DNA of 32,008 nt from Deltaproteobacteria bacterium (lineage in GTDB: Bacteria > Desulfobacterota > Desulfobacteria > Desulfobacterales > Desulfosarcinaceae), in assembly GCA_021819735.1 (NCBI GenBank), contig JAKAFO010000004.1, positions 8,366 through 40,373 on the forward strand, written 5' to 3'. The translations under genes were made by a program, and so were the position numbers. Shown one piece after another: positions 37-29,149 of the stretch. The first letter of the stretch is position 1. Each line of letters begins with the position of its first letter. Under the pieces are notes generated by a model. It was not told the DNA's origin. It was given only the letters and a program-made list of their open reading frames with translations, and made no database searches.

Positions 37-45
37 GAGGTGCCT

Positions 46-10211: not shown

Positions 10212-13200
10212 ATGACCGACCGGGCTCTCCTCAAAGCTGAAGCGTCTTCGGACATCGCCATCATCGGCATGGCCGGGTTTTTCCCCGACGCACCGGATGT
10301 GGATACTTATTGGCACAACATCCTGCGCCGTCATGTGGCCTTCAGCGAGATTCCCGCCCGGCGCTGGGATTGGCGGCTCTATTACGATAGCGATCCCCAG
10401 GCACCGGACAAGGTCGTTTCCCGCTGGGGCGGATTTCTGCCCGAGACGGTGTTCGATCCACTGCTTTTCGGCATTCCCCCCAAGACGTTGACCTCGGTCG
10501 AAACCGTGCAGTTGCTGGTGCTCGAGAGCACGCGCTTGGCTCTGGCCGATGCGGGCTACCAGGAGCGGCCCTTTGACCGCGAGCGCACCTCGGTGTTCAT
10601 CGGCGCCGGGGCCGGGGAGAACGACCTGGGGCAGATGTTCAGCTTCCGCGCCTTGATGCCGCACTATTTCGGTCCCAGCGCGGCCGAGATCCTATCCCGG
10701 ATGAAGCCCGGCGTGCCGGAATGGGACCCGGATGTCTTCACCGGCGTGATCACCAACATCATCGCCGGCCGGGTGGCCAACCGCTTCAATCTGGGCGGCA
10801 CCAGTTGCACCATCGATGCCGCCTGCGCCTCGGCCCTGGCTGCCCTGCGGGCCGGCATCATGGAGTTGCGCAGCGGCGAAAGCGACCTGGCCATCGTGGG
10901 CGGCGCCGATACCTTGATGGGGCCCTTTGCCTACAGTTGCTTTTCCGTGGTGGGGGCACTGTCTCCCAAGGGCGTGAGCCGGCCCTTCGACGAACAGGCC
11001 GACGGTCTGGTGTTGGGCGAGACGGTGGCCACGGTGATCCTCAAGCGTTTGGCCGATGCCCGCCGGGACGGCGACCGGGTGTATGCCGTGATCAAAGGCA
11101 TCGCCGCCTCCAGCGACGGCCGGGCCAAGAGCCTGACGGCTCCCAGTGCCGACGGACAACACCTGGTTTTGACGCGCGCCTACCGCAACGCGGGCATCGA
11201 CCCCCGCACCGTGGGGCTCATCGAGGCCCATGGCACGGCCACCAAAGTGGGCGACCTGGCCGAAGCCGCGGCCCTTAAACAGTTCTTCAGCCGGCAGGCG
11301 GCCGAGGCCCGAAGCTGCGCCGTGGGTTCGGTCAAGTCCCAGATCGGCCATGCCAAATGCGCCGCGGGCATTGCCGCTTTGATCAAGGCCGTCCTGGCCC
11401 TGCACCACAAAGTCCTGCCGCCCACCGTAGGCGTCGAAACCCCCATCGCCGACCTGGACGGTCCGGACAACCCCCTTTACCTCAACACCCGCACCCGGCC
11501 CTGGATCGTCGACGGCCGGCACCCGCGGCGGGCCGGCGTGAGCGCCTTCGGTTTCGGCGGCACCAATTTTCATGCGGTGCTGGAAGAGGCCCCGGCCGAG
11601 GCCGGCGGCCGCCCGGCGCTCGCGCCCGTGGCGACCTGGGATAGCGAGCTGCTGCTGTTCAAGGCCGACGGCCGGGAGGCGCTGCGCCAAAAGATCGCCG
11701 CGTTGCTCCGGCAACTGCGGGCCGGCGCCGTTTGTGCCTTGAAAGACCTGGCCTTTACCCTGGCCGGTGAATACAGCTCCCAAAAAGAGGACGGGGTGCG
11801 CCTGGCTGTGGTGGCCGCTTCGCTTCCGGATCTGGCCGCCAAGCTGGAAAGCGCCGTGACCATGTTGGATTCGGGCGCTGCGGCCGCAGCCGGCATTTAC
11901 TTCGAAGCGGGAGCGCCCCTCGCGGCCGACCGGATCGCCTTCGTTTTCCCGGGACAGGGCTCCCAATACCCGGGCATGCTCAAATCGCTGGCCGTGGCCT
12001 TCGCCGAGGTGCGCGCGGTATTCGAACGCTTCGATGCCCACCTGGCCGAGCAGTTGCCCAAACCCTTGAGCCGCTATATCTATCCGCCCGATCTTTTTAA
12101 GAGCGAAGAGCAGAAAAGCGTCGAGCGCGCCCTGACCCAGACCTTCGTGGCCCAGCCGGCCATGGGTGCCGCCGATGCCGCCATGCTGCGCTTGCTGGCG
12201 CTCCTGGGCCTGCGGCCGGCCATGACCGCCGGCCACAGCTACGGCGAGTATGTGGCTCTCTTTGCGGCCGGCGTGTTGGATGAAAAGGCCCTGGCGCTGA
12301 TCTCCGAGGCTCGCGGCCGTTTCATCCTGCAGGCCTCCCAGCCCGAGCCGGGTACCATGGCGGCGGTCAAGGCCCCCGAAGAAGCGGTGGCCGACGCGAT
12401 CGCCGGCCTGGACCAGGTGTGGATCGCCAATCTCAACGGACCGCGCCAGACGGTCATCAGCGGCACGTCGGCCGGCGTGCGCCAGGCCATCGAGCGGCTC
12501 TCCCGGAAAAAACTTTCGTGCGTGCCGATTCCCGTGGCCTGTGCCTTCCACAGCCCGATCGTGGCCGGCGCCCAGAGCCGTCTGGCCGAGTTCTTCGGCC
12601 AATTCGAGTTCCGGCCGGCCCACATCCCGGTGTTCAGCAATACGACCGCCGGCCTTTTCCCGGAAGCGGCGGAGGCCATCCGCAACCTGCTGGTGGAACA
12701 GTTGGCCCGACCGGTGCGTTTCGTGGATGAGGTCGAGGCCATGTACGCGGCCGGCGCGCGGATTTTCGTGGAAGTGGGCGCCGGTAATGTCCTGACCCAT
12801 CTGATCGACCGGATTCTGGACGGAAAACCGCATGCCGCCATCTGCACCGATATCAAAGGCCAAGCTGCGCTGACCCAGTTGCAGCATGCCCTGGGCCGCC
12901 TGGCGGTTTTGGGCACCCCCCTGACGCTCGAACCGCTCTTTACCGGACGCGGCGTGCGCCGGCTGGATCTGGAGCGGCTGACGGCCCAAGGCTCGGCGGT
13001 ACTTTCCAAAACCGCTTACATCATCGGCCAGGGCGGGGTGCGCCCCGCCGCCCAGGCGGCCCGCGCCCACATCCACCCGCCGCGCCCCATCCGCTTTGCC
13101 GACGATGGGCCGGCGACGCCCGAACCGCTGCCGCAAATCGCCCTAACCCCAGAAACTCCCCACACACCATCCTTCGGCGGTGAGACCATGGAAACTTTCA

Positions 13201-16200
13201 AGCCCGCTCCTGCTGTTCATGGAGCCATGCCCGACGTCACGGTCATGGTCAAATTTCAAGAGCTGATGAGCCAGTTCCTGGAGACCCAGAAAGCGGTCAT
13301 GACGGCCTATTTGGGCGCGGGTGAGGGCACCGGCCTGGATGCCGTCGGCGCGGCGTTCGCCGCCGCCCCGCTCCTGAACCCGTCCGCGGTGCCGGCCGAG
13401 CCGCTGCGGTTCGAGCCTGCTCCAGCATGGGACAGCCCTTCGGCCCCGGTTCCGCCGCCGCCCGCGGCCGTGCGCGAGGAAGCGGCGACGGCCCCCGCGC
13501 CGGAGCAGCGCTTCGATCTGAGCGCCGTGCTGCTGAAAATCGTCAGCGATCGCACCGGCTACCCCGGCGAGATGCTGGACCTGAAGCTGGAGATCGAAGC
13601 GGATCTGGGCATCGATTCCATCAAACGCGTGCAGATTACCGAAGAGCTGGTGGCGAGCCTGGAGGCCGTCGGCATCAAACTGCCCAATGAAGAGCTGGCC
13701 GCCGTGGCCGGCAGCGTTACCCTGGGCGACATCATTACCAAGCTCCAGGTGCTCATTCAGACACAGCCGGCGCAATCGGCGCAGCCATCGGCAGCCGCGC
13801 CAGCGGCGCCCGTCGGCTTCGATCTTGCCACAACCTTGCTGCGCATCGTCAGCGAGCGCACCGGCTATCCCAGCGAGATGCTGGACCTGAAGCTGGAGAT
13901 CGAAGCGGATCTGGGCATCGACTCGATCAAGCGCGTGCAGATTACCGAAGAGCTGGTGGCGAGCCTGGACGCCGCCGGCATCAAACTGCCCAACGAGGAG
14001 CTGGCCGCCATCGCCGGCAGCATCACCCTGGGCGCAATCGTCGAAAAGCTGCAAGCCCTGCTCCAGGCGCACACGGCCCGGCCGGCGGCACAGCCCGTGA
14101 CCGCCCCGCCGGCAACACTCGTTCAGCCCATGGCCCCTGCTCTGGACGCCAAGGCCATGCTGCTGGGCATCGTCAGCGACTTGAGCGGCTACCCGGCTGA
14201 GATGCTGGATCTGAAGCTGGAGATCGAGGCGGATCTGGGCATCGATTCCATCAAGCGTGTGCAGATCATGGAGCACTTCCTGGCGGCTTTGGAAAAGCAG
14301 CAGTTGACGCTGCCCGATGCCGAGGTGGCCCAATTGGCGGCCAGCGTCACCCTGGGGGAGATCGTGGCCCGCATCGATCTGCTGCTGAGCGCATCGGCCA
14401 CGGCATGCGAGGGGCCTTGCCATGCGCCGGAACGCCGGGCCGAGCAGCGTGCGACCGCGCCCCAGCCGGCGGCGCCGACGGCCGCGCCGGCAGGCGCCAC
14501 GGTGGCCGAGGCCCTGACGCCCCAAGCCCTGCAAGGCCTGCTCTATGAGTTGATTCAGGAGTACACGGGCTACCCCAGGGAGACCCTGGCGCCCGATCTG
14601 GAATGGGAGGCCGACCTGGACCTGGACCCGGCCGGAAAGTCCCGTCTGCTGACGGCCTTTGTTGCCGCCGTGGGCCGGGCCTGCGGGGCCGTGCCGGAGG
14701 CCGACGTGGAAGCGGGGCGGGCGGCCCGGTGCGTGGAACACACCCTGGCGTGGATGGCCGCGGCCCCCGTGGCCCGGGACCTGATCGAGCGCCGGGCAGT
14801 CGAACAGATCCGACGCTTCACCCTAGTGGAACGCGAGCAGCCGTTGATGGTGCCGCCCGCCAAACCCTTCGACGGCAAGCGCGTGGTGGTCACCCAGATG
14901 CCCGATGATCCCTTGGCCGCCGCGGTGGTGGCCGAGTTGAGGGCCGCCGGCATCCAGCCGGTGCGGCTCGTGCATGGGCCGGCTTTCCGCGATGGCGCCG
15001 AACAGGCCCATGGGGTCGATCTTACCGCCTACGATCAGCTCAAGGCGACCATCGAGGAGATCCGCAAGCAAGGGGCGCCCGTGGGATTGCTGCACCTGGT
15101 GCCCCTGGCCCCGGCCCCGGCTATGGAAAACATGCAACTGGCCGACTGGAAGCAGCGGCTGGCCCTGGAGATCAAGAGCCTTTTCTACCTGACCAAACTG
15201 CTGGCCGACGATCTCACCGCGGCGGTCCAGGGCGGAGATGCCAGCCTGGTGGCTGTCACCGCCATGGGCGGTGCCTACGGCCGCGCGGCCGACGGCGACC
15301 AGGCATGCACCTTCTTCCCGGGCAGCGGCGGCGTCAGCGGTTTTCTGAAGAGCGCGGCCCTGGAGATCCCCGGCCTCAATGTGCGCGCCGTGGACCTGGA
15401 ATTGGGCGAAGCGCTCCAGACCCTGGCGGCGCGCATCCGGGACGAGTTCCTGACCGCCAGCGCCCAAGTCGAGGTGGGCTACCGGGCCGGCCGCCGCCTG
15501 GTGCTGGATGTGCAGCCCGCGACGATCGAATCGGGGCAGACAGCGCTGCTGAGCATCGATTCGCAGTGGCGCCTGCTGGTCACCGGCGGTGCCCGGGGCA
15601 TCACGGCCAATGTCGCCCTGGAGTTGGCCCGGCGCTATCGACCGACCCTGCTGCTAGTGGGCCGCACGCCGCTGTCCGAGACGGAGGAGGAGCAAACCGC
15701 CGGCATTGACGATCCCAAGCAGTTGAAGGCCCTTCTGGCCCAGGGCCTCAAAGCGCAAAATAAGAACGTCAAGCCGGTGGAAGTCGAGCGCGCCTACACC
15801 CGTCTGATCCATCAGCGTGAAGTGCGCCGGACCCTCTCCCAGATCGCGGCCACCGGCGCCAAGGTGCGCTACTACGCGGCCGATGTCACCGACGAAGCAG
15901 CCTTCGGCCGGGTGCTCGACGGCATCTACGCCGAGTTCGGCCGCATCGACGGCGTGCTGCACGGCGCGGGCCTGATCGAAGACAAGATGGTGCGGGACAA
16001 GGATGTGGCCTCCTTCGACCGGGTGCTGGATACCAAAGCCGACAGCCTTTTTATTCTGAGCCGCAAGCTGCGCGCCGACCAGTTGCGCTTCGTGGGGCTC
16101 TTCTCCTCGGTGGCCGGCCGCTTCGGCAACCTCGGCCAGGCCGATTACGCCGCCGCCAACGAGGTGCTCAGCAAGTGCGCGCTCTACCTCAACCGGCGCT

Positions 16201-17315
16201 GGCCGGGCCGGGTGGTCTCGTTGATGTGGGGCCCCTGGGAGAGTCACGGCATGGTTTCGGCCGAGCTGCGGCGCAAGTTCGAAGAGAGCGGCATCTACCT
16301 GATTCCGCCGGAGATCGGCGTGGCGCGCTGCATCGATGAGATCGCCCATGGGACCCAGGCCGACGCCGAAGTGGTCTTCGGCGGCTGGGACGACCGCCAG
16401 AAAACGCTCTTCCCGGCCAAGGGGGCCGAACGACTGCCGCTGTTCTTCGCCAATGCCAACTTCAAGCCCCGCCTCGACGGCCAGGTGGACGTATTGCGCC
16501 ATCTGGCCCCGGAGCGCGATATCTACCTGTTGGATCACAAACTCGACGGCCGTCCGGTGCTGCCCATGGCCATGGCCATGGAGATGATGGCCGAAGCGGC
16601 GGCTTACCGCTACCCCGATTACTACCTCAAGAGCCTCAGCGACCTGAAAGTCTTCAAAGGGATCATCGTGGGCAACGGCGCGGAGCACATCCACATCGCG
16701 ATCACCCCCCAGATGAAAGGCCGGGAGCGCATCGTGCTCAAGGCCCAGATCCGCAATCCGCACAAGGAGCAGTGCGTCTACTACGAGGCGCGGCTCGAAC
16801 TGGGCAAGGAGGCGCGCACCTTCCGACCGCACGTGGCCATCGAGTTGCGCGAGGCCGAACCTTTTGGCCTTTCCGTGGGCGAGGCCTACCGGCAACATCT
16901 GTTCCACGGTCCGCTCTGGCAGGGCATCGAAGCGGTCCAGGCCATCGGCCGCGACGGTATCGTGGGGCAGCTCAAGCCGTCCCGGCCGGAAGGATTTATC
17001 CAGGGGGTCTGCGGCCGGCACGCCTGGCTGGTGGACCCGCTGGTGATCGACAGCGGCCTGCAACTGGTGGGTTTATGGGCCCGCCGCCGCTTCGACATCA
17101 TGCCCCTGCCGTCGCGCATCAAAAAGTACGTGCAGTACGATCGAGCGCCGGGTGACGGGCCGCTGCGCTGCGAGGTGCATGTCGGATCGCCGGAAAGCAA
17201 GGGGATCAAGGAAGCCGAACTCTATTTCGTGAAAAACGACGGTCAATTGTTTGCCTGGATCCAGGGCTTGGAGATCATCGGATCGACGGAGTTGAACCGT
17301 TTGGCGCAGAAGTGA
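10212..17315 (+). CDS. PfaA/HglE-like iterative polyketide/fatty acid synthase, KS-AT-ACP3-(degenerate ACP)-KR-DH
   Basis: The 2367-aa multidomain enzyme should build and partly reduce an acyl chain from malonyl units. The KS (about 14-455) has an intact triad Cys205 (DAACAS), His340 (EAHGTAT) and His380 (IGHAKCAAG). The AT (about 573-900) has GQGSQ at 581-585, GHSYGE with Ser676, and CAFHSP with His780, which looks malonyl-type. A helical FLETQKAVMTAYL segment is at 1022-1034. Three ACPs have LGIDSIKRVQI serines at 1136, 1238 and 1346. A fourth ACP-like unit has Pro1473 where Ser is required. A KR with TGGARGI (1791-1797) and Tyr1979, in a long PfaA-type frame, follows. A hot-dog DH has His2109 (HKLDGRPVLP) and Asp2280. 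No ER is present. The start follows AAGGAA; the stop overlaps the next ATG. Compared with PfaA, the attached DH and few ACPs are distinctive. Confidence 0.93.
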   Translation: MTDRALLKAEASSDIAIIGMAGFFPDAPDVDTYWHNILRRHVAFSEIPARRWDWRLYYDSDPQAPDKVVSRWGGFLPETVFDPLLFGIPPKTLTSVETVQLLVLESTRLALADAGYQERPFDRERTSVFIGAGAGENDLGQMFSFRALMPHYFGPSAAEILSRMKPGVPEWDPDVFTGVITNIIAGRVANRFNLGGTSCTIDAACASALAALRAGIMELRSGESDLAIVGGADTLMGPFAYSCFSVVGALSPKGVSRPFDEQADGLVLGETVATVILKRLADARRDGDRVYAVIKGIAASSDGRAKSLTAPSADGQHLVLTRAYRNAGIDPRTVGLIEAHGTATKVGDLAEAAALKQFFSRQAAEARSCAVGSVKSQIGHAKCAAGIAALIKAVLALHHKVLPPTVGVETPIADLDGPDNPLYLNTRTRPWIVDGRHPRRAGVSAFGFGGTNFHAVLEEAPAEAGGRPALAPVATWDSELLLFKADGREALRQKIAALLRQLRAGAVCALKDLAFTLAGEYSSQKEDGVRLAVVAASLPDLAAKLESAVTMLDSGAAAAAGIYFEAGAPLAADRIAFVFPGQGSQYPGMLKSLAVAFAEVRAVFERFDAHLAEQLPKPLSRYIYPPDLFKSEEQKSVERALTQTFVAQPAMGAADAAMLRLLALLGLRPAMTAGHSYGEYVALFAAGVLDEKALALISEARGRFILQASQPEPGTMAAVKAPEEAVADAIAGLDQVWIANLNGPRQTVISGTSAGVRQAIERLSRKKLSCVPIPVACAFHSPIVAGAQSRLAEFFGQFEFRPAHIPVFSNTTAGLFPEAAEAIRNLLVEQLARPVRFVDEVEAMYAAGARIFVEVGAGNVLTHLIDRILDGKPHAAICTDIKGQAALTQLQHALGRLAVLGTPLTLEPLFTGRGVRRLDLERLTAQGSAVLSKTAYIIGQGGVRPAAQAARAHIHPPRPIRFADDGPATPEPLPQIALTPETPHTPSFGGETMETFKPAPAVHGAMPDVTVMVKFQELMSQFLETQKAVMTAYLGAGEGTGLDAVGAAFAAAPLLNPSAVPAEPLRFEPAPAWDSPSAPVPPPPAAVREEAATAPAPEQRFDLSAVLLKIVSDRTGYPGEMLDLKLEIEADLGIDSIKRVQITEELVASLEAVGIKLPNEELAAVAGSVTLGDIITKLQVLIQTQPAQSAQPSAAAPAAPVGFDLATTLLRIVSERTGYPSEMLDLKLEIEADLGIDSIKRVQITEELVASLDAAGIKLPNEELAAIAGSITLGAIVEKLQALLQAHTARPAAQPVTAPPATLVQPMAPALDAKAMLLGIVSDLSGYPAEMLDLKLEIEADLGIDSIKRVQIMEHFLAALEKQQLTLPDAEVAQLAASVTLGEIVARIDLLLSASATACEGPCHAPERRAEQRATAPQPAAPTAAPAGATVAEALTPQALQGLLYELIQEYTGYPRETLAPDLEWEADLDLDPAGKSRLLTAFVAAVGRACGAVPEADVEAGRAARCVEHTLAWMAAAPVARDLIERRAVEQIRRFTLVEREQPLMVPPAKPFDGKRVVVTQMPDDPLAAAVVAELRAAGIQPVRLVHGPAFRDGAEQAHGVDLTAYDQLKATIEEIRKQGAPVGLLHLVPLAPAPAMENMQLADWKQRLALEIKSLFYLTKLLADDLTAAVQGGDASLVAVTAMGGAYGRAADGDQACTFFPGSGGVSGFLKSAALEIPGLNVRAVDLELGEALQTLAARIRDEFLTASAQVEVGYRAGRRLVLDVQPATIESGQTALLSIDSQWRLLVTGGARGITANVALELARRYRPTLLLVGRTPLSETEEEQTAGIDDPKQLKALLAQGLKAQNKNVKPVEVERAYTRLIHQREVRRTLSQIAATGAKVRYYAADVTDEAAFGRVLDGIYAEFGRIDGVLHGAGLIEDKMVRDKDVASFDRVLDTKADSLFILSRKLRADQLRFVGLFSSVAGRFGNLGQADYAAANEVLSKCALYLNRRWPGRVVSLMWGPWESHGMVSAELRRKFEESGIYLIPPEIGVARCIDEIAHGTQADAEVVFGGWDDRQKTLFPAKGAERLPLFFANANFKPRLDGQVDVLRHLAPERDIYLLDHKLDGRPVLPMAMAMEMMAEAAAYRYPDYYLKSLSDLKVFKGIIVGNGAEHIHIAITPQMKGRERIVLKAQIRNPHKEQCVYYEARLELGKEARTFRPHVAIELREAEPFGLSVGEAYRQHLFHGPLWQGIEAVQAIGRDGIVGQLKPSRPEGFIQGVCGRHAWLVDPLVIDSGLQLVGLWARRRFDIMPLPSRIKKYVQYDRAPGDGPLRCEVHVGSPESKGIKEAELYFVKNDGQLFAWIQGLEIIGSTELNRLAQK
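13512..14390 (+). repeat. Tandem acyl-carrier-protein domain repeats inside the first synthase gene
   Basis: Three in-frame ACP units begin near 13512, 13818 and 14142. The first two are nearly identical in DNA around the phosphopantetheine site and onward through the rest of the domain, joined by Ala/Pro/Gln-rich linkers, and repeat with a 306-bp period. The third matches them up to the serine motif and then diverges (IMEHFLAALEK instead of ITEELVASLE). The pattern indicates a recent duplication of unit 1/2 and possible partial gene conversion with unit 3. A fourth, degenerate unit follows at about 14520-14730. ACP copy number is a known yield determinant in PUFA synthases. Confidence 0.9.
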
Positions 17316-20300
17316 TGCAAACCATGGATAGTGGACATAGCCCTGAAAAATCGGCGCCCAAGAACGAGGCAATCGCCATCGTCGGCATGGCCTGTACGTT
17401 TCCCAAGGCGCCCGACCTGACCACCTATTGGCACAACATCATCAATAAGGTGGATGCCATCGCCGACGCGCCGGCCGATCGTTGGGATGCGTCGCGCTTC
17501 TACGACCCCCAGGACGGCACCAAGCTCTATGCCCGGCGCGGCGGTTACCTGGACGGCCCCCTGGCCTTCGAGGCGGCCGAGTTGGGCGTTATGCCGTCGG
17601 CCGTGGCGGGCGGCGAGCCCGACCAGTTTCTGGTGTTGAAGACCGCCGCGGCGGCCATGCGCGACGCCGGCATCCAAAACGATCCGGCCTTGGAGCGCAC
17701 CGATTTCATTCTGGGCCGGGGAGCCTACCTGAGCGCCGGTGGTTTCAATCTCTTGCAGCGCACCTTGATCGTGGAGCAGACCGTCAACCTGGTGGGCCAA
17801 CTGCACCCGGGCATGAACACCGAGGCGCTCCGAGGCCTCAGGGACGGGCTGCTGGCCTCCCTGCTGCCGTTCGAAGCCGACACCGCCGCCTCGGTCATGC
17901 CCAACATCACGGCCGGCCGGGTCTCCAACCGGCTGGGGTTCATGGGACCCAACTACACCATCGACGCGGCCTGCGCCTCGTCCCTGTTTGCCGTGGACAT
18001 CGCCGTGGCCAATTTGCGCTCCGGACGCTCCGATCTGGCCCTGGCCGGCGGGGTCCACGTCTTCAATACCATTCCGTTTTTAAGCGTGTTTTGCGCCCTG
18101 GGCGCCATGTCCCGCAAAGAGTGCATCCGGCCTTTCGACCAAAATGCCGATGGCCTGCTGCCCGGCGAAGGGGTCGGCATCGTAGTCCTCAAGCGTCTGT
18201 CCGACGCCGAGCGCGACGGCAACCGGATCTACGCCTTAATCCGCGGCGTGGGCAGCTCCAGCGATGGCCGAGGCGGCAGCGTGGCGGCCCCCCGCGTGGC
18301 GGGCGAAGCCCTGGCCGTGCGGCGCGCCTATGCGGCGGCCGGTGTTTTGCCCCAGACCATCGGCCTGATCGAAGCCCATGGGACCGCCACCCTCGTGGGC
18401 GACACGGCCGAGGTGGAATCCCTGAAGACGGTCTTCGGCGCCAAACCCGACACCCTGGCCCGCTCGTGCGCCCTGGGCAGCGTCAAGTCCATGATCGGCC
18501 ACGCCATGCCGGCCGCCGGCATCGCCGGCTTGATCAAGGCCGTGCTGGCCCTTTACCACAAGGTGCTGCCGCCTACGCTGCACTGCGAGGCCCCCAACCC
18601 CAAATTCGAATTGGAAACGACGCCCTTTTACATCAACACCGCCACCCGGCCCTGGTTCCGCATGGCGCCCGATGTGCCGCGCCGGGCCGGCGTGAATGCC
18701 TTCGGTTTCGGCGGCGTCAACGCCCACGTGGTGCTCGAGGAGTATTCGGCCGCGGTTCCCGAAACTTGCCATCCGGCCTGGGATGCGGCCCTGTTCCTCT
18801 TCGCGGGTGATAGCCAGGCCGCCCTGGTCCAGGCCTGCGCAACGGCCCTGGCGTATTTGCAAAGCAATACTTCGCTGGATTGGCTGGCCTGGTCCCGGGA
18901 CATCGTACGTGCATTCCGCCCCGCGGCGCATCGGTTGGCCGTCATCGCCGAAGGTCCCGAAGATCTCTCGCGCAAGCTGGGCTATGCCATGCAAAAGCTG
19001 CAAACCGGCGACTGCAAGAAGATCAAGGACGTCAAGGGGATTTACTACTTCGCCGCGCCGTTGGGCTCCCAGGCCAAGATCGCCTTCATGTTCCCGGGCG
19101 AAGGTTCGCCCTACGCCAATATGCTGCTGGACCTGTGCCTGGTCTTTCCGGAAGTGCGGGCGGTCTTCGAAGCTGTGGATGCGGCGATCCTGTCCCGTTC
19201 CCAAAAAAGTGCCTTGCAGCCCAGCCAATTTATCTTCCCGGCCACATTGCTTACGTCCTGCGAAATGGAGACGCTGGGCGCCCAATTCTGGAAGGTGGAC
19301 AGCGGCCTGCAGGCCATTCTGGCCGCCAGCCTGGCCATGCAAGCCCTGCTGGCGCGCTTTGGGGTGCAGCCGGACATGATCGTGGGCCACAGCGCCGGAG
19401 AGTATTGCGCCTGGATCGCTTCGGGCATCCTGGCAATAGAGGAGTTGTACCGCCACCAGGAGCGCATCGCCGGCATCTACGCCGCCCACCGCCATCCCCA
19501 GGAGACCGCTATGATGGCCGTTTCCGGCCGCTTCGACAAGATCCGGCCCATGGTGGAAGGGCTCGGCGGGGCGATCTACATTTCCAACGACAACTGCCCC
19601 CACCAGGTGGTGGTGGTGGGCGAAGCGGCGGCCGTGGCCCAATTGAAGGCGCAGTTGAAGGCCCGCAGCATTCTCTTCACCGACCTGCCGTCCCGGGAAG
19701 TCCATCATACCGCCCTGGCCGCGCCCCAGGCCGAACCTTTGTTCCAGACCTATGCGCGCATGGCGGTGCATGCCCCGCGAGTGCCGGCCTATTCGGCCAC
19801 GACCGCGGCGCCGTATCCCGACCAGGCGCCGGAGATCGTGCGCCTGATGACCGACTACTGGCTCCAGCGGCTCAATTTCAGAAGCACGGTGGAGGCCATG
19901 CACCGCGACGGCGCCCGAATTTTCATCGAAGTCGGACCCGGAACCAATTTGTCCGGCTTCGTGGACGACACCTTGCGCGGCAAGCCGTTCATGACCGTGG
20001 CCGCCAACAACAGCCGGCGCTCGGGCATCGGCCAGTTGTGTCATCTGCTGGGCATGCTGGTGGCCCAGCATGTGCCCGTGAATTTGGATGCCTACGATCC
20101 GCTGCCCTGGGCCGCGGTCCAGGAACTATCGCCGGACGCTGCCAAGCCCAAGCCCAAAGCCGGCACGGTTTTCATGGAACTGGGGCTGCGGGAGTTGACG
20201 CTGCCCGAGCCGACCCTGGCGAGCCTGCAAAAGCATTTCAATCCACCGCTCCCCGCGGCAGCATCGCCCAAAGCCGAACCCCAGGCACCGGCGGCGTTGC

Positions 20301-21844
20301 AGGCCGAGGCCGACCCAGGCAAGCATGCCACCGTTGCCGTGCCCCAGCCGGCCGCCGTGTCGCCCAAAGCTGACGTCATGCAGCGCTATATGGACAACAT
20401 GGCCCAGTTTCTGGCCCTGCAAAAGCAGGTCATGACCGCCTGGCGCGCGCCGCGCTCGGCGCAGCCCGTGACCGAGCGGCCTTTTGCGCGGCGGGTCATC
20501 TCGCTCTCGCCGCGCCAGGCGTGCCGGGTGCAATGCGACATCGATTTGAAAAAAGAGCGCTTCCTGGAAGACCATCCCATGGTCGGCAGCCGGCCGATTT
20601 CCGACCGGGACCCCGGCCTGCTGCCCCTGATCATCACGCCCATGACCCTCAACCTGGAGATCATGGCCGAAGCCGCGTCGCTCCTGCACCCGGGGCAGAT
20701 GCTGCTGGAAGTAAAGAACGGCCGCGCCAACCGCTGGGTCGAGGTGCCCGAAGCGGGCGCCACCACGCTGGAGGTCCAGGCCAGGCAAGCTGCGGGCGGC
20801 GACGTCCAGGCCCGCTTGTTCGCTCCGGCCTTCGGCATGGCCTCGGCGGAAGCCAGCGCCGTATTCGGCACCCAGTATCCGCCCTCGGCCGTGGGCGAAC
20901 CGGTCAACGCCGAGCACATTACGCCCGAGGCCGCCGCGCGCGCCCGGGAGATCTACGCCGCCAAGTACATGGCGCACGGACCGCGCTTCCAGGTGATCGC
21001 CGGCTGGACCCAGGTGGGCCCAAGGGAAGTAGAGGTCTATCTGCGGGCGCCGGCCGACAACGACCTGTTTGCCGACATCCGCGCCCCCCGGCTGCTGCTC
21101 AACCCGCTCTTGCTGGATGCGTGTGCCCAATTGGTGGGGCATTGGGCCCAGATCAGCCTGGGCGAAAAGTTCATCACCTTTCCGGCGGGCGTGCAGCATA
21201 TCCGTTTTTTCTCCGACCCGCCACGGCCGGGAAAATTGCTCAAATGCCGTGTGCGCATCGGCGACATCGACGACCACTGTGTGCGCGCCGACATCAAGAT
21301 GACGGCCAGCGACGGCCGCCAATGGCTGACGGTCCAGGGCTGGACCCACCGGCGCTTCGCCTTGCCGTTGGAGTTCTACCACTTCTGCCGATTCCCCAAG
21401 GCCAACGCCATCGGACAACCGGTAACGGCCGAGAAGGATCGCAAGCGATCCGGGGCTTTCACCTGCCGGATCGCAAATTATCCCGAACTGAACCGCACCA
21501 TCTGGAAACAGGGCCTCGGCATGATCTTCCTGAACCGCGCCGAGCGTCGGGTCTACAAAGAGAAATTGTCCCGCGACGAAGCCGAAGCCGATCGCTGGCT
21601 CACCGAACGCATGGCCGCCAAAGAGGCCGTGCGCCTCTTTTTGAAGCAGTATAACCGCCTGGAAGTATTCCCCGCGGATATCGAGATCGAAGAAATCGAT
21701 GGACATCTTATTCCCAAGGGCGATGGCCTTTCCGAGCTCGACCGGCCGTTGTCCCTGACCATCTCGCATACGGAGCAGTTCGCGGCCGCCCGCGTGAACC
21801 CGGGGGCGGAAACTATCAAACGGGAGAGAGCACAGAATGACTAG
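17315..21844 (+). CDS. Second iterative synthase, KS-AT-DH with fused phosphopantetheinyl transferase
   Basis: This is a 1509-aa partner of the preceding synthase. The KS (about 20-475) has an intact triad Cys220 (DAACASS), His355 and His396. The AT (about 590-900) has FPGEGSPY in place of GQGSQ, GHSAGE with Ser693, and REVHHTAL where malonyl ATs have AFH. A linker carries FLALQKQVMTAWR (1032-1044). The hot-dog DH has His1087 (FLEDHPMVGS) and Asp1268 (LLDACAQ). The C-terminal about 110 residues form a PPTase-like domain with RWLTERMAAKEA (Lys1436-Glu1437) and SHT (His1485). No ACP domain exists, so it must use carriers in trans. GTG 17312 is in frame, but ATG 17315, overlapping the previous stop as TGATG, is the likely start. 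The classical early Asp motif of PPTases is not obvious, so that activity is probable, not certain. Confidence 0.9.
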   Translation: MQTMDSGHSPEKSAPKNEAIAIVGMACTFPKAPDLTTYWHNIINKVDAIADAPADRWDASRFYDPQDGTKLYARRGGYLDGPLAFEAAELGVMPSAVAGGEPDQFLVLKTAAAAMRDAGIQNDPALERTDFILGRGAYLSAGGFNLLQRTLIVEQTVNLVGQLHPGMNTEALRGLRDGLLASLLPFEADTAASVMPNITAGRVSNRLGFMGPNYTIDAACASSLFAVDIAVANLRSGRSDLALAGGVHVFNTIPFLSVFCALGAMSRKECIRPFDQNADGLLPGEGVGIVVLKRLSDAERDGNRIYALIRGVGSSSDGRGGSVAAPRVAGEALAVRRAYAAAGVLPQTIGLIEAHGTATLVGDTAEVESLKTVFGAKPDTLARSCALGSVKSMIGHAMPAAGIAGLIKAVLALYHKVLPPTLHCEAPNPKFELETTPFYINTATRPWFRMAPDVPRRAGVNAFGFGGVNAHVVLEEYSAAVPETCHPAWDAALFLFAGDSQAALVQACATALAYLQSNTSLDWLAWSRDIVRAFRPAAHRLAVIAEGPEDLSRKLGYAMQKLQTGDCKKIKDVKGIYYFAAPLGSQAKIAFMFPGEGSPYANMLLDLCLVFPEVRAVFEAVDAAILSRSQKSALQPSQFIFPATLLTSCEMETLGAQFWKVDSGLQAILAASLAMQALLARFGVQPDMIVGHSAGEYCAWIASGILAIEELYRHQERIAGIYAAHRHPQETAMMAVSGRFDKIRPMVEGLGGAIYISNDNCPHQVVVVGEAAAVAQLKAQLKARSILFTDLPSREVHHTALAAPQAEPLFQTYARMAVHAPRVPAYSATTAAPYPDQAPEIVRLMTDYWLQRLNFRSTVEAMHRDGARIFIEVGPGTNLSGFVDDTLRGKPFMTVAANNSRRSGIGQLCHLLGMLVAQHVPVNLDAYDPLPWAAVQELSPDAAKPKPKAGTVFMELGLRELTLPEPTLASLQKHFNPPLPAAASPKAEPQAPAALQAEADPGKHATVAVPQPAAVSPKADVMQRYMDNMAQFLALQKQVMTAWRAPRSAQPVTERPFARRVISLSPRQACRVQCDIDLKKERFLEDHPMVGSRPISDRDPGLLPLIITPMTLNLEIMAEAASLLHPGQMLLEVKNGRANRWVEVPEAGATTLEVQARQAAGGDVQARLFAPAFGMASAEASAVFGTQYPPSAVGEPVNAEHITPEAAARAREIYAAKYMAHGPRFQVIAGWTQVGPREVEVYLRAPADNDLFADIRAPRLLLNPLLLDACAQLVGHWAQISLGEKFITFPAGVQHIRFFSDPPRPGKLLKCRVRIGDIDDHCVRADIKMTASDGRQWLTVQGWTHRRFALPLEFYHFCRFPKANAIGQPVTAEKDRKRSGAFTCRIANYPELNRTIWKQGLGMIFLNRAERRVYKEKLSRDEAEADRWLTERMAAKEAVRLFLKQYNRLEVFPADIEIEEIDGHLIPKGDGLSELDRPLSLTISHTEQFAAARVNPGAETIKRERAQND

Positions 21845-22127
21845 ACCGGACAAGGCGACCATATTCAAAGATATCTTAGCGACCCTGGAACGTGTCGGCG
21901 AAGATTGGGAATACTCCGGCGAGATCACCCTCGACACCACCTTGCTGCAGGATCTGGGCCTGGAGTCCATCGATGTGGTGGTGCTGGGCGAATTCCTGGA
22001 AGAACATTACGGCCAGACCTTTCCCTTTACCGAATACTACACCGAATTGTCGCAGAAGAATAAATCGGACATTCGCATCGCGGATATCGTGGATCTGATC
22101 TTCGACCACTTCGAGGCCCAACCATGA
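21837..22127 (+). CDS. Stand-alone acyl carrier protein
   Basis: This 96-aa acidic helical protein has the phosphopantetheine site DLGLESIDVV with Ser44, preceded by the usual DTTLLQDLGLES helix boundary. It starts 8 bp inside the gene for the KS-AT-DH-PPTase synthase and its stop overlaps the next start codon, so its synthesis is tightly coupled. Since that synthase lacks an ACP, this protein is a good candidate for its carrier, activated by the fused PPTase, or for presenting the finished chain to tailoring enzymes. It is longer than E. coli AcpP (78 aa) and carries a less conserved segment FPFTEYYTELSQKNKSD near the C-terminal third. Confidence 0.9.
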   Translation: MTRPDKATIFKDILATLERVGEDWEYSGEITLDTTLLQDLGLESIDVVVLGEFLEEHYGQTFPFTEYYTELSQKNKSDIRIADIVDLIFDHFEAQP

Positions 22128-23728
22128 CCAAAAACGGACGAACGACATTGATGATCGGCCTGGACGGCGCTACTTTTTCCATTCTCGATCCGCTCATGGA
22201 AGCCGGCCACATGCCGTTTTTGAGGCAATTCGTGGCCCAAGGGGTGCGCGCCGAACTGCAATCGACCATTCCGCCCATCACCCCGCCGGCCTGGACCACC
22301 ATTATGACCGGCCGCAGCCCGGCCCAACACGGCATTCTGGATTTCTTCCGCCCCGAGTCGCCGGGCAGTCGCTTTCTGCGGTTTGTCAGCACCAAGCAGC
22401 TCAAATGCGAAAGCATCTGGACCCATTTGATGCACCAGGGGTTGAGCGCCATCAATCTGAACTTTCCGGTGATGGCCCCGCCGCTGCCCATCAAAGGGTA
22501 CAGCATTCCGGGTTTCGTGACCTGGCGCCACCTGCGGCACAGTTGTTCGCCGGGGGACTTGATGGATACCTTGAAAGCCATCCCCGGCTTCGATCTGAAG
22601 ATCATCGCCCATGACTTCGGTCTGGAGGAAAAGGTGGTGCAGGGCTGTTCTTTCACCGAGTCCGAAGGCTGGATCAAATACCACACCTATAAGGATGAAC
22701 AGTGGCTGCTGGTGCTGGGCCACCTGACCCGCACGGACCCCTGCGATCTGAGCGCGCTGGTGCTGGACAGCCCGGACCGCTTGCAGCATGTCTTTTACCG
22801 GCTGCTGGACCCCCAATGCTTCCCGGCGAACTGGAGCGAACAGGACCGCCAGATCCGCGGCGTCCTGGAAGGCCACTACCGGGCCCTGGACGGCATGATC
22901 GCCCGCATGGCGGCCGACGCCGGGCCGGAGGCCAATATCTTCATCGTCTCCGATCACGGTTTCGGCCCCAGCCAGGAGTGCTTCTATTTGAACACCTTCC
23001 TGGAGCGGTTGGGCCATCTGAAATGGTCCGAGCGGGCCGTGAGCGACCAGGACGGTGCCGGCGATGTCTCCATGGAGGCGGTGCGCAATCACGGCAACAT
23101 CCTGGATTGGGAGCAGACCCTGGCCTATGTCAACACGCCCAGCAGCAACGGCATCACCATCAACGTCGCCGGCAAGAACAGCCGCACCGGCATCGCGCCC
23201 GAAGATTACGACACCTTCGTGAACGTCTTGCGCGAGCAGTTGCTCAGCCTGCGCCACCCGCGCACGGGCCAACCGGTGGTTACGCGGATATGGACCCGGG
23301 AGGAGGCTTTCGACGGTTGCGAACTGGCGCCGGACCTGACCGTGAGACTGTGGGACAACGGCCTGGTCTCCACGGTCAAGTCGGATCGAATCGTCAAGCC
23401 GCGCCGGGAATGCATCGGCGTGCACTACCCCATGGGCGTCTTCATGGCCAAGGGGCCCGACATCCAATCCGGCCTGCAACTGGAGCCTCTGAATATTTTG
23501 GATGTGGCCCCGGCCATGCTCCACAGCCTGGGCCTGGCCATCCCGGCGGCCTATGAAGGTCGCGTGCCCGCGGAGATGTTACGTAAGGAGTCCCTGGCGG
23601 CGCGGCCCGTGGCGATCGATGACGCCGCGCCGAGTTTCGAGCAGCAAGCCGCCGCCTCCCTGGAAATGGACGAGGAGGATATGGACCTGATCGTCAAGCG
23701 GCTCAAGGGATTGGGATATCTGGCATAA
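22124..23728 (+). CDS. Alkaline-phosphatase-superfamily phosphodiesterase (type I NPP-like)
   Basis: This 534-aa predicted metal-dependent hydrolase or transferase belongs to the nucleotide pyrophosphatase/phosphodiesterase branch. Metal and nucleophile motifs are visible: LMIGLDGATF with Asp14, PPAWTTIMTG with probable nucleophile Thr59 followed by SPAQHGILDFF, DSPDRLQHVFYR, and IVSDHGFG with Asp277-His278. A further conserved His lies in the C-terminal third. No signal peptide or membrane helix is seen, so it appears cytoplasmic, where it could act on phospho- or nucleotide-activated lipid intermediates. The ATGA overlap with the ACP gene places it firmly in the operon. Exact chemistry (phosphate hydrolysis, phosphodiester transfer or sulfate ester chemistry) cannot be deduced. 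Confidence 0.85.
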   Translation: MTKNGRTTLMIGLDGATFSILDPLMEAGHMPFLRQFVAQGVRAELQSTIPPITPPAWTTIMTGRSPAQHGILDFFRPESPGSRFLRFVSTKQLKCESIWTHLMHQGLSAINLNFPVMAPPLPIKGYSIPGFVTWRHLRHSCSPGDLMDTLKAIPGFDLKIIAHDFGLEEKVVQGCSFTESEGWIKYHTYKDEQWLLVLGHLTRTDPCDLSALVLDSPDRLQHVFYRLLDPQCFPANWSEQDRQIRGVLEGHYRALDGMIARMAADAGPEANIFIVSDHGFGPSQECFYLNTFLERLGHLKWSERAVSDQDGAGDVSMEAVRNHGNILDWEQTLAYVNTPSSNGITINVAGKNSRTGIAPEDYDTFVNVLREQLLSLRHPRTGQPVVTRIWTREEAFDGCELAPDLTVRLWDNGLVSTVKSDRIVKPRRECIGVHYPMGVFMAKGPDIQSGLQLEPLNILDVAPAMLHSLGLAIPAAYEGRVPAEMLRKESLAARPVAIDDAAPSFEQQAAASLEMDEEDMDLIVKRLKGLGYLA

Positions 23729-23739
23729 GGAGAAAAGCA

Positions 23740-24651
23740 ATGCCCTTCGTCACCGTCAACGGCATCAAACATCACTATATGCAGCAAGGCAGCGGCCCCG
23801 ACGTGGTGCTGATTCACGGCATGGGCGGCAATATCTCTTTCTGGCATGCCAATAAGGCCCTGGCCGCGCTGAAAAGCGATTTCCGCGTCACGGTCTACGA
23901 TCTGCGCGGGCACGGCTACAGCGATTTTGTGAAAAGCGGCTATACGTCCAAGGATCTGTCAGCGGATTTGAACGCCTTGCTCGAGGCCGTCGGCGTGCAA
24001 AAAGCCTTTCTGGCCGGGCACAGCCTGGGGGGGTTGGTGGCCTTGCATACGGCCTATCTTTATCCCGAGAGAGTCGCCGGCATCGTCATGGCCGAGGGCA
24101 ATGTGCCGGCCTTGCGCCATCTCATCGACCTGGACAAATGGTCCTTCCGCCAGCAGCGCGACGATATGCTGCGGGAGATCGATCCCAGGCTGCCGGAAAT
24201 GGTGCGGGGCCAGGACATCTTCTACCTGGAGTACCGCTTGAAAAACGCCAAGAAAGAAATCGGCGACAGCGATCTCAACCAATTCGGCTTGCGCAAGGGG
24301 ATGGCCGTGAAAGGTAAAGGGGTTTTACGGCTGCTGGAAGAGACCACGATTAAAAAAGACGTTCGCGACCTGGCCGGCCTGACCGAGGCATGTATCCGCA
24401 CGGTGACCCAGCCGACGTTGGCGCTCTACGGGGAGTATTCGCCCCTGATCCCGATTTCGGAGTATCTGCGCGATCATCTGCCCAACTGCACCCAGGAAGT
24501 CATTCCCAAAGCCTGTCACCTGTTCCCGGCCAGAATGCCGGATAACTTCGTCAACAGCCTGGGCGCCTTTCTGTTTAAAATCGCCAAGGCAGCGCCCTGC
24601 GAGGTTCATTATGCAGCCCATGCAACCGCTCCGACCGCCCAAGTGGCTTGA
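23740..24651 (+). CDS. Alpha/beta hydrolase (possible chain-releasing thioesterase)
   Basis: This 303-aa single-domain alpha/beta-hydrolase has an oxyanion-loop segment VVLIHGMGGN, DLRGHGYSD, and the nucleophile elbow AGHSLGG with Ser95. His260 in the segment PKACHLFP is the likely catalytic histidine. At the usual acid position, where relatives read G-x-x-D-x-x-x-P, this protein has YGEYSPLIP, so Ser234 stands where Asp is normal; Glu232 or another acid may substitute. There is a good AAGGAG before the ATG. No signal peptide is seen. Within a synthase operon it could release the chain from a carrier, proofread it, or hydrolyse a lipid ester. Its 3' end overlaps the sulfotransferase gene by 41 bp. 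Confidence 0.85.
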   Translation: MPFVTVNGIKHHYMQQGSGPDVVLIHGMGGNISFWHANKALAALKSDFRVTVYDLRGHGYSDFVKSGYTSKDLSADLNALLEAVGVQKAFLAGHSLGGLVALHTAYLYPERVAGIVMAEGNVPALRHLIDLDKWSFRQQRDDMLREIDPRLPEMVRGQDIFYLEYRLKNAKKEIGDSDLNQFGLRKGMAVKGKGVLRLLEETTIKKDVRDLAGLTEACIRTVTQPTLALYGEYSPLIPISEYLRDHLPNCTQEVIPKACHLFPARMPDNFVNSLGAFLFKIAKAAPCEVHYAAHATAPTAQVA

Positions 24652-25219: not shown

Positions 25220-25260
25220 GAGGGTGGGGCTGACCCATCCTCAAGAAGGGAGAGGGGGAG

Positions 25261-26769
25261 ATGACCATGAAAGCCAGACAATTACTGGAATCGAAGCCGC
25301 GCGGTTATCATCTTGCGGAACTGGTGGTCTTGGGGGCCGATACGACCACCGATCTGCTGGAACGGCTGGCGCATTGGTTGAAGGCTTTGGAAGCGGCTTC
25401 CGAGGGAAACGGCTTGCTCAAGCAACTGGCCTACGACAGTTACCGGCAATTCGACGGCCGGCCGAGCCGGTTGCGCGTCGCGCTGACCGCCTACGGTGAA
25501 GGCGATCTGCGCAAAAAAATGGCGCAAATGCGCAAAATGATCGGCGACCGGCCCCAGGACGGTTTTTCTTTCCCCGCCGCCGGGCTTTTTTACGGCGCCG
25601 GCGAGACCGGCGCCCAAATGGCTTTCCTCTTCCCGGGACAAGGGTCCCAGTACCTGAACATGGGCAAGGCCCTGGCGGATGCCTTTCCGGCCGCGCGTCG
25701 CGCCTGGGACACCCTGGGCCGCATGCGTTTCGGCGCCAAGAGCATCACGGAGATGGTTTTCCCGCCCGAATCGATGAGCGAAGAAGAGAAGAAATGGGCT
25801 TTCCTGGAGCTCTGCGGGGCGGAGTGGGCCAGCCCATCGATTGCCGTGGCCGGCGAGGCGATTTTGAATCTGCTGGAAGAAATGGGGGTCCGACCGGATG
25901 CGGTCGGATCGCATAGTTTCGGCGATATCGCCGCGTTGCGGGCGGCACATGTCATTTCCAGCGAAGATATGCTCAAGGCGATCCGTTTGCGGGGAGATAT
26001 GGGCGTTGCGTGTCCCCAAGCCACTCGGGGATGCATCTTGGTGGTGCCCGAATCCGCTGACCGAATAAAAGCCGAACTCGCCAGGCACGGCATCGAACAG
26101 GTGTGGGTCGCCAATTACAACTGGGGGAGCCAAACGGTTCTGTCCGGCTTGAAAGCGGGCATCGCCAAAGCCAACGACGTGTTCCAGGCGCAAGGCATTA
26201 ACAGCCGGTTGATCCCCATATCGGCAGCGCCCCATTGTCCACTTTCATACAATGTCACCGAAAATTTCTTCGAACACCTGCGAGAGATTCCCTTCGCCAA
26301 AGCCGATTTCGAGGTTTACTCCAGCTTGTTCGGGCGCAAGGTCCATAACGATCCCGATCTGTTGCGCAAGATACTAAAGGTCCATAGCGAAAAACCGGTA
26401 CGCTTCCTGCGCCAGATCGAACAGATGCATCGTGATGGTGTACGGATCTTCATCGAGGTGGGGCCGTCCGATGTATTGACCCAACTGGTGGGCCAGATTC
26501 TGGAAGGCAAGGCGCACGTCGCTTTGAGCACCGACCAGCGCAAAAAAGACGGGGTGCTGGTCTTCTTGAACACGGTCGCCGAACTTTTCAAGGAAAACCG
26601 GATCAAGGACCTGTCGCCACTGTGGGAGGGCTATCGACTCCCGAGCACCGCCGGATTGGAAGCGCGCGGCAGGGCGAGCGCTTCCGCCGCCGTGGAAAAG
26701 TACTTGTACCAATTGGACCTTGAATTCGCCAAGATCGAAAAGGGATACCCGACGGCTCAGGCGGTCTGA
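25261..26769 (+). CDS. Stand-alone acyltransferase, PfaB/FabD-like
   Basis: The 502-aa protein has an N-terminal region of about 115 residues resembling the linker that precedes AT domains in synthases, then a complete AT domain. The AT starts MAFLFPGQGSQYLNMG and has the nucleophile elbow VGSHSFGDIAALRAA with Ser219, the substrate Arg in RLRGDM, NYNWGSQTVLSG, and an active-site His in AAPHCPL. The elbow reads SHSFGD rather than GHSxGE and the usual AFHS motif reads APHCP, so substrate choice may differ from malonyl-CoA. In PUFA systems the separate AT PfaB strongly affects product type, a plausible role here. ATG 25267 is an alternative start, since GGGGGAG ends right before 25261; both starts have a usable upstream purine stretch. 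This is probably the last gene of the operon. Confidence 0.88.
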   Translation: MTMKARQLLESKPRGYHLAELVVLGADTTTDLLERLAHWLKALEAASEGNGLLKQLAYDSYRQFDGRPSRLRVALTAYGEGDLRKKMAQMRKMIGDRPQDGFSFPAAGLFYGAGETGAQMAFLFPGQGSQYLNMGKALADAFPAARRAWDTLGRMRFGAKSITEMVFPPESMSEEEKKWAFLELCGAEWASPSIAVAGEAILNLLEEMGVRPDAVGSHSFGDIAALRAAHVISSEDMLKAIRLRGDMGVACPQATRGCILVVPESADRIKAELARHGIEQVWVANYNWGSQTVLSGLKAGIAKANDVFQAQGINSRLIPISAAPHCPLSYNVTENFFEHLREIPFAKADFEVYSSLFGRKVHNDPDLLRKILKVHSEKPVRFLRQIEQMHRDGVRIFIEVGPSDVLTQLVGQILEGKAHVALSTDQRKKDGVLVFLNTVAELFKENRIKDLSPLWEGYRLPSTAGLEARGRASASAAVEKYLYQLDLEFAKIEKGYPTAQAV

Positions 26770-28989: not shown

Positions 28990-29149
28990 ATCTCCAACCA
29001 ATTTTTGACGAGGATCGGCGCGTGATACGCGACCGATGTATGCCCAATAGGAAGAACGCTCTAGGCATCCTATGATCCCGTGGCCCTTGAATATTAGTGA
29101 ACCTGTCGCTTTCTCTTGCTGATGCGATAGGGTGCCGAAGGAGACATGC

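What the first reader, a model, noticed from the sequence alone, without database searches (positions are those of the whole stretch)
10212..26769. Two-megasynthase secondary-lipid operon with a non-PUFA domain set
Seen: one operon encodes KS-AT-ACP3-degenerate ACP-KR-DH and KS-AT-DH-PPTase, then ACP, phosphodiesterase, hydrolase, sulfotransferase and a third AT, with overlaps or short gaps. Known: PUFA synthases (PfaA-E) need a KS-CLF-DH-DH subunit and a separate ER; heterocyst glycolipid (HglE) and enediyne synthases use related single proteins. Inference: this is a distinct iterative lipid or polyketide synthase whose product is probably tailored by the four small enzymes. I know of no characterised product for this exact gene set.
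Basis: partly seen in the sequence, partly recalled or inferred. Interest (0 to 1): 0.78.

Follow-up and report, generated by a model that had tools for sequence, protein, structure and literature searches.

The report
Sulfotransferase-linked two-subunit lipid synthase operon
An uncultured bacterium of a sulfate-reducer order carries an operon for two giant enzymes that probably build a long lipid, which a sulfotransferase may then tag with sulfate and a neighbouring pump may export; it is a new variant of a known enzyme class, and its product is unknown.

Summary
Window 10212-26769 encodes PKS1 (KS-AT-ACP3-dead ACP-KR-DH), PKS2 (KS-AT-DH-tail), ACP, phosphodiesterase, hydrolase, sulfotransferase and AT, spaced -41 to +41 bases. 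One call is wrong: the PKS2 tail is only the first half of a PPTase, without either catalytic motif, in all four window-type loci found. Those loci share these seven genes plus a propeller gene; three of four also carry TetR-TolC-MacAB upstream. No enoyl reductase was found in the window; a PfaD lies just downstream in one of the four loci. KS trees place neither subunit in the PfaA, PfaC or enediyne clades. PKS2 belongs to a two-subunit family (99/99) with Streptomyces, Bryobacterales and other Desulfobacterota; PKS1 and the PKS2 tail are related to the Ars/Type P phenolic-lipid synthase of Beijerinckia. So it is a new variant of a known kind. A paralogous cluster in the genus carries a different sulfotransferase, and in the 99%-complete relative both Sulfotransfer_3 genes sit in these clusters; many wider relatives have no sulfotransferase there, and several carry glycosyltransferases instead. 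Best reading: an iterative synthase for a long, possibly polyene lipid that is sulfated and exported. The product is unproven.

The parts
3560..4195 (+). TetR-type regulator, same place in G009 and G007
   Evidence: Pfam TetR_C_36 over cut-off; 100% and 70% identical homologues
5112..6629 (+). TolC-type outer-membrane efflux protein
   Evidence: PF02321 169.9 bits; conserved in G009 and G007
6616..7908 (+). MacA-like adaptor
   Evidence: HlyD_D23 over cut-off; also in G009, G007 and the paralogous cluster G007:C34
7920..8681 (+). MacB-like ABC ATPase (named by eye; no Pfam run)
   Evidence: conserved in G009 and G007
8707..9918 (+). MacB-like permease
   Evidence: MacB_PCD and FtsX over cut-off; also in G009, G007 and both paralogous clusters
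10212..17315 (+). PKS1: KS-AT-ACPx3-degenerate ACP-KR-DH; no N-terminal enoyl reductase
   Evidence: KS trees
17312..21844 (+). PKS2: KS-AT-DH-N-terminal half of a PPTase; its AT lacks the Arg of malonyl transferases
   Evidence: trees
21837..22127 (+). discrete acyl carrier protein
   Evidence: PF00550 over cut-off
22124..23728 (+). type I phosphodiesterase (alkaline-phosphatase superfamily); no signal peptide seen by eye
   Evidence: PF01663 137 bits; weak PDB matches to phosphonoacetate hydrolase and NPP
23740..24651 (+). alpha/beta hydrolase, likely thioesterase or esterase
   Evidence: PF00561 105.9 bits
24611..25219 (+). sulfotransferase, short Sulfotransfer_3 form
   Evidence: PF13469 48 bits; a 12-row profile matches cytosolic sulfotransferases of known structure
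25261..26769 (+). AT3: stand-alone acyltransferase, Ser/His/Arg kept
   Evidence: PF00698 92.8 bits; alignment
27093..28808 (+). propeller-like protein with a signal-like N-terminus (by eye); beside AT3 also in G009, G329 and two G007 loci
   Evidence: no Pfam family over cut-off
29132..31033 (+). acyl-CoA ligase; uncertain member
   Evidence: PF00501; linked to a propeller-AT3 pair and a thiolase in G007:C22 8-22 kb

Best explanation
The operon encodes a two-subunit iterative 'secondary lipid' synthase of the two-KS branch related to Ars/Type P. PKS1 AT loads malonyl units onto the tandem ACPs; the KS domains of PKS1 and PKS2 extend the chain; KR reduces and the two DH domains dehydrate it. 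As neither an enoyl reductase nor a catalytic PPTase was found in the window, the ACPs must be primed by a PPTase encoded elsewhere, and the chain either stays polyene-like or is reduced in trans, for example by the genome's PfaD. The finished chain goes to the discrete ACP (perhaps by the PKS2 AT, which lacks the malonyl-binding arginine), is released by the hydrolase, sulfated on a hydroxyl by the sulfotransferase and exported by the linked TolC-MacAB pump. Shown: gene order, domains, motifs, phylogeny, conservation. Inferred: order of reactions, product, sulfation, export.
For: Domains and motifs. Eight genes conserved in 4 of 4 loci. PKS2 KS clade 99/99, ten rows. PKS1-PKS2-ACP-PDE-hydrolase in G414, G672, G633 and G716, followed by a glycosyltransferase in G414 and G672; Streptomyces PKS1-PKS2-ACP-hydrolase-glycosyltransferase-methyltransferase: a core plus exchangeable head-group enzymes. 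Sulfotransferase link: the paralogous cluster, found through PKS2, has a Sulfotransfer_3 gene next to PKS2 in G007 and G000 that aligns with the window ST mainly over a 22-residue loop. Of PF13469 genes, 2 of 2 in G007, 1 of 1 in G009, 2 of 3 in G000, 1 of 2 in G329 and 2 of 4 in G288 lie in such clusters, and 1 of 3 in Desulfocicer vacuolatum (G334), about 7.3 kb past its DH-half-PPTase gene on the same strand. Exporter: TolC-MacAB in 3 of 4 window-type loci, MacB permease in both and MacA in one of the paralogous clusters, ABC exporter genes beside Desulfocicer, Gemmataceae, Planctomycetota, Beijerinckia and Methylosinus relatives. A PPTase gene elsewhere: G000:C118.
Against: No product is known for any window-type locus. 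No Sulfotransfer_3 match lies on the cluster's contig in G672 (0 of 11 matches), G633 (0 of 3), G716 (0 of 1) or G389 (0 of 4, contig only 6 kb); none was found at all in G385, G146 or G414; in Bryobacterales (0 of 4) and one Planctomycetota (0 of 2) the matches lie on contigs of other lengths. In Gemmataceae both matches lie about 9 kb upstream of PKS1, but with genes of both strands between. So sulfotransferase linkage is a feature of some Desulfobacterales lineages, not of the family. The exporter is absent from the flank read in G329 and ends 293 bases before PKS1, so it may be its own operon. The ST family also occurs without the synthase, fused to or within two genes of a phosphodiesterase in 12 of 15 contexts read, so PDE and ST may form a module with another job. 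Propeller and AT3 also stand together away from the synthase in G007.
Confidence: 0.55

Rival explanations
1. The operon makes an ordinary long fatty acid for membranes, with PfaD in trans as enoyl reductase; sulfotransferase and phosphodiesterase have an unrelated role.
For: One PfaD over cut-off in six of seven genomes tested; in G329 it lies just downstream of the locus, and G329 (76% complete) has no other protein over the TIGR02813 cut-off. PDE-ST pairs exist without the synthase, and several relatives have no linked ST.
Against: In the window genome PfaD sits beside a separate PfaA (G000:C174). A different ST is linked to the paralogous cluster. A linked exporter fits poorly with a membrane acyl chain (inference).
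Confidence: 0.25
2. Enediyne-like polyene synthase: with no enoyl reductase the product is a conjugated polyene.
For: No ER domain in PKS1, PKS2 or the operon proteins scanned. KS1 falls on the same side of the tree as enediyne PKSEs (90/98, open fork).
Against: Two subunits, two KSs, three ACPs; enediyne rows sit on a branch of length 2.13; none of the companion genes annotated is seen in the operon.
Confidence: 0.12
3. Sulfotransferase, hydrolase and ACP act as a discrete form of the olefin-synthase ending: sulfation of a beta-hydroxyacyl-ACP, then hydrolysis, decarboxylation and loss of sulfate, giving a terminal alkene or polyene.
For: ACP, hydrolase and ST are co-encoded; hydrolase and ST genes overlap by 41 bases. 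The ACP-ST-thioesterase logic of CurM and OLS is recalled.
Against: ACP and hydrolase occur together without a linked ST in Streptomyces, G414, G672, G633 and G716. No entry named CurM or OLS is among the 49 PDB matches of the ST profile up to E = 1; no direct comparison was made.
Confidence: 0.08

Closest known systems
Two-subunit synthase of Streptomyces sp. NBC_00984 (perhaps Type M of Shulse and Allen 2011; that assignment was not tested)
   Same: PKS1, then full-length PKS2 (KS-AT-DH-PPTase), ACP and alpha/beta hydrolase; PKS2 KS in the same clade
   Different: PKS1 has an N-terminal FabK-like reductase and ends after KR; the PPTase is complete; glycosyltransferase and methyltransferase follow; no PDE, ST or AT3 match
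Ars/Type P system (Beijerinckia indica pBIND02; Azotobacter vinelandii arsABCD)
   Same: PKS1 45% identical over KS-AT; the ArsD-like protein is a DH-PPTase, 27% identical to the PKS2 tail; ABC exporter genes nearby
   Different: Type III PKS genes, N-terminal enoyl reductase, catalytic PPTase, no second KS subunit. Azotobacter itself was not compared
PUFA synthase PfaA-E
   Same: PKS1 has the order KS-AT-ACPn-KR-DH of the genus's own PfaA and passes TIGR02813
   Different: KS1 outside the PfaA clade, no KS-CLF-FabA subunit, no PfaD in the window
Enediyne PKSE (Streptomyces parvus plasmid)
   Same: KS-AT-KR matches in one protein with a PPTase-like end
   Different: Single protein with companion enediyne genes; KS on its own long branch

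Membership tests
PUFA synthase (PfaA-E) | KS-CLF-DH-DH subunit (PfaC) | tested here: not met
   No FabA domain in PKS1 or PKS2, while G007 has a separate PfaC with them; KS2 keeps its Cys
PUFA synthase (PfaA-E) | Proximal KS nests with PfaA | tested here: not met
   Eight-row PfaA clade 100/99 excludes it; AU p 0.0046
PUFA synthase (PfaA-E) | Linked PfaD enoyl reductase | tested here: not met
   The genome's one PfaD over cut-off is on another contig; linked in one of four window-type loci, G329
PUFA synthase (PfaA-E) | TIGR02813 score over cut-off | tested here: met
   1276.4 against 1010.1 bits, but Beijerinckia ArsA-like PKS1 also passes with 1156.1, so it does not discriminate
Ars/Type P phenolic-lipid synthase | PKS1 and DH-PPTase homologues | tested here: met
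Ars/Type P phenolic-lipid synthase | KS1 in one supported clade with ArsA | tested here: inconclusive
   Same 17-row side of the tree, 90/98, fork drawn open
Ars/Type P phenolic-lipid synthase | Type III PKS in the cluster | tested here: not met
   None among the operon proteins scanned; PF02797 over cut-off in 0 of 5 genomes
Ars/Type P phenolic-lipid synthase | N-terminal enoyl reductase on PKS1 and catalytic PPTase | tested here: not met
Two-subunit PKS1-PKS2 secondary-lipid family | PKS2 KS in one clade | tested here: met
   99/99, 10 rows; 100/99, 11 rows
Two-subunit PKS1-PKS2 secondary-lipid family | ACP and hydrolase near PKS2 | tested here: met
Enediyne PKSE | Single protein with enediyne companion genes and KS in the PKSE clade | tested here: not met
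Heterocyst glycolipid synthase (HglE/HglC) | KS clade with HglE | not tested
   No HglE sequence was among the records fetched
OLS/CurM sulfotransferase ending | ST of the CurM/OLS family | tested here: inconclusive
   No entry of that name in 49 PDB matches; no direct comparison

The most novel reading that the evidence does not exclude
A new class of exported, sulfated long-chain (perhaps polyene) lipids in Desulfobacterales, built by a synthase family in which some lineages use sulfation where others use glycosylation, which has repeatedly lost the catalytic half of its fused PPTase, and which works with priming and perhaps reducing enzymes in trans.
Probability: 0.4. Interest if true: 0.68.

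Novelty: new variant of a known kind. Interest (0 to 1): 0.5.

Why it matters
In the 2011 survey of secondary-lipid synthases 14 of 20 types had no known product (PMC3098273). The pairing of this synthase with at least two different kinds of sulfotransferase in Desulfobacterales gives a concrete, testable guess, a sulfated lipid, in an order known for sulfate respiration, and such a lipid could be looked for in existing sediment lipidomes. The repeated loss of the catalytic half of the fused PPTase, with the first half kept, shows how a domain name given by resemblance can mislead in this family.

Tried and rejected
PUFA-synthase membership: rejected by tree and missing subunits. Enediyne membership: rejected. 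'PPTase': rejected. The TIGR02813 hit was set aside as evidence because the Beijerinckia PKS1 passes too. CurM/OLS-like ending: kept as a rival only. The single-sequence PDB search with ST gave only weak, partly irrelevant matches (best E 0.0047, designed armadillo proteins); the 12-row profile worked. The promoter and terminator scan was uninformative: 2 promoter-like sites against 4.3 expected, 14 terminator-like against 17.6. Papers: PMC3098273, parts 1-4 of 7 and passages; PMC13291983, abstract, outline and passages; PMC4824345 and PMC11804610, passages; all others listing only. Eight rows were dropped before the second KS tree: Desulfocicer_C50_KSa and KSb, the CLFs of Persicobacter, G007 and G022, Persicobacter PfaC KS, Azospirillum second KS and Anaerolineae PKS2; one search holds all 49. 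My script failed to add the FabF outgroup, so both trees are midpoint-rooted. The motif patterns are strict: they miss the enediyne PKSE, and they miss G716 and G672, which read as intact by eye. The odds of the enediyne-like and olefin-ending rivals were lowered slightly in that revision (0.15 to 0.12, 0.10 to 0.08); no other odds were changed.
Full report
Where it is. The window is G000:C41:8366-40373 of a 5.3 Mb, 517-contig assembly (95% complete, 7.9% contamination). The nearest relative with the cluster (G009, PKS2 92% identical) has a contig of the same length and position as JACRDD010000004.1, a Desulfobacterales MAG from groundwater.

Anatomy. PKS1 and PKS2 were checked with Pfam, NCBIfam and active-site motifs. 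Both KS domains keep Cys-His-His, so PKS2 is not a typical chain-length factor. The PKS1 AT looks like a malonyl transferase. In the PKS2 AT the active serine is kept, but the arginine that binds the malonyl carboxylate (role recalled) is Ile in the window and G329 and is absent in the Streptomyces, Desulfobacula and cluster-b PKS2 rows; the stand-alone AT3 keeps it in 5 of 5 rows. PKS1 has three ACPs and a fourth whose serine is lost. The seven genes are spaced from -41 to 41 bases.

The PPTase correction. In Beijerinckia, Streptomyces and Bryobacterales the homologous tail carries a Pfam ACPS domain, with GxDxE and WxxKE motifs after an AKDAVR-type segment. In the window, G009, G007 and G329 the protein stops soon after the first half. 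Of 21 rows (20 distinct; Desulfocicer is there twice), 6 have both motifs by pattern; the ten distinct Desulfobacterota rows have neither. The wider phylum is mixed: of five more Desulfobacterota rows, G414 and G633 have both by pattern, G672 and G716 by eye, and G389 is degenerate. On the PKS2 tree the pattern label needs at least three changes (with G672 and G716 counted as lacking). PF01648 elsewhere: one match in G000, two each in G007 and G009, none in G329, which is 76% complete.

Enoyl reductase. PKS1 of Beijerinckia and Streptomyces has a FabK-like region before the KS, that of Desulfocicer and Desulfobacula an NMO domain. The window PKS1 starts at the KS. Six of seven genomes tested have one PfaD over cut-off; G009 (64% complete) has none. 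In the window genome PfaD sits beside a separate PfaA; in G329 it follows the locus, with one 4Fe-4S protein gene between.

Phylogeny. With 49 KS rows and with 41 after dropping 8, PKS2 forms a clade (100/99, 11 rows; 99/99, 10 rows). PKS1 lies with Ars-like and two-subunit PKS1 rows and the enediyne rows (59/97, then 90/98), not with PfaA (100/99). Holding window-type KS1 inside PfaA is rejected (AU p 0.0046); holding KS2 with PfaC KS is disfavoured (AU p 0.038). TIGR02813 does not separate these groups.

Distribution. The PKS2-tail query matches 18 of 389 genomes of the order, but only G000, G007, G009 and G329 at 42% identity or more, and 8 of 395 of the phylum sample, the window genome included. 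A scan of named genomes gave 10 loci, from Desulfobacterota, Hydrogenedentes, Bryobacterales, Planctomycetota (Gemmataceae included) and Anaerolineae; its two patterns were narrow, so absence means little.

Neighbourhoods. PKS1, PKS2, ACP, PDE, hydrolase, ST, AT3 and propeller occur in 4 of 4 window-type loci; TetR-TolC-MacAB in 3 of 4. G414, G672, G633 and G716 have PKS1-PKS2-ACP-PDE-hydrolase; UGT-type glycosyltransferases follow in G414 and G672, and a sulfatase-family gene in G672. Bryobacterales has PKS2 with ACP, PDE and hydrolase on the other strand. G146 has PKS1-PKS2-ACP-two hydrolases and a UGT-type gene. A propeller-AT3 pair also stands near TetR, acyl-CoA ligase and thiolase genes in G007, away from the synthase.

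Sulfation, for. The paralogous cluster (PKS2 about 31% identical; found by PKS2) has its own Sulfotransfer_3 gene next to PKS2 in G007:C34 and G000:C509. In five genomes 8 of 12 PF13469 genes lie in such clusters (the two pieces at G000:C305 counted as one gene); the C305 gene has no match to the operon on its 17.9 kb contig. Desulfocicer adds 1 of 3. A simple placement estimate with 30 kb per cluster gives 0.0001 to 0.02 per genome for the five; the window-type loci were chosen with an ST in them, so only cluster b, Desulfobacula and Desulfocicer are independent.

Sulfation, against. The window ST family is elsewhere fused to, or within two genes of, a phosphodiesterase in 12 of 15 contexts read, from 14 of the 42 matching genomes: a module whose role I cannot name. 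Only PF13469 was counted, not other sulfotransferase families.

Literature. Shulse and Allen 2011 define 20 types; Beijerinckia indica ATCC 9039 is in their Type P with Azotobacter (PMC3098273), whose ArsA and ArsD are described as a fatty acid synthase and a PPTase (PMC4824345). The word sulfotransferase does not occur in the held text of PMC3098273 or PMC13291983.

Verdict. A real, conserved, uncharacterised operon; a new variant of the two-subunit secondary-lipid synthases. A sulfated, exported lipid is the best-supported product class but remains inference.

Noticed in passing
G000:C509, C290, C455; G007:C34:98000-124000 (L020, L021): A second, paralogous two-subunit synthase cluster in the same genus, with an AT3-like gene, a MacB permease and a different sulfotransferase; its PKS1 in G007 keeps only a weak, partial NMO-like N-terminus. 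That the three G000 contigs form one cluster is a guess.
   Followed up: partly
L050, L056, L057 and nine other loci: Sulfotransfer_3 proteins fused to or near alkaline-phosphatase-superfamily phosphodiesterases, with no PKS1/PKS2 match in the stretches read: a recurrent module of unknown role in this order.
   Followed up: partly
L096:3832-12329 (G007:C22): A second propeller-AT3 pair with TetR, acyl-CoA ligase and thiolase genes, roughly 90 kb from the synthase; its propeller is closer to the window's (64%) than the one inside the G007 operon (53%).
   Followed up: partly
L070:3746-18809, L039, L040, L083 (Desulfobacula): Related cluster on two strands with two sulfotransferases, a UGT-type glycosyltransferase and a radical SAM-SPASM gene.
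   Followed up: partly
L073:9926-19715 (Desulfocicer vacuolatum DSM 3385): In a cultured strain, the half-PPTase gene is followed by ABC exporter, LolA-like, FMN oxidoreductase, VTT-domain and sulfotransferase genes on one strand; a tractable place to test the family.
   Followed up: partly
window 40-1479, 1570-2928, 2765-3406: RtcB-like, phosphohexomutase-like and TrmO-like genes upstream, read by eye only; they look like housekeeping genes.
   Followed up: no
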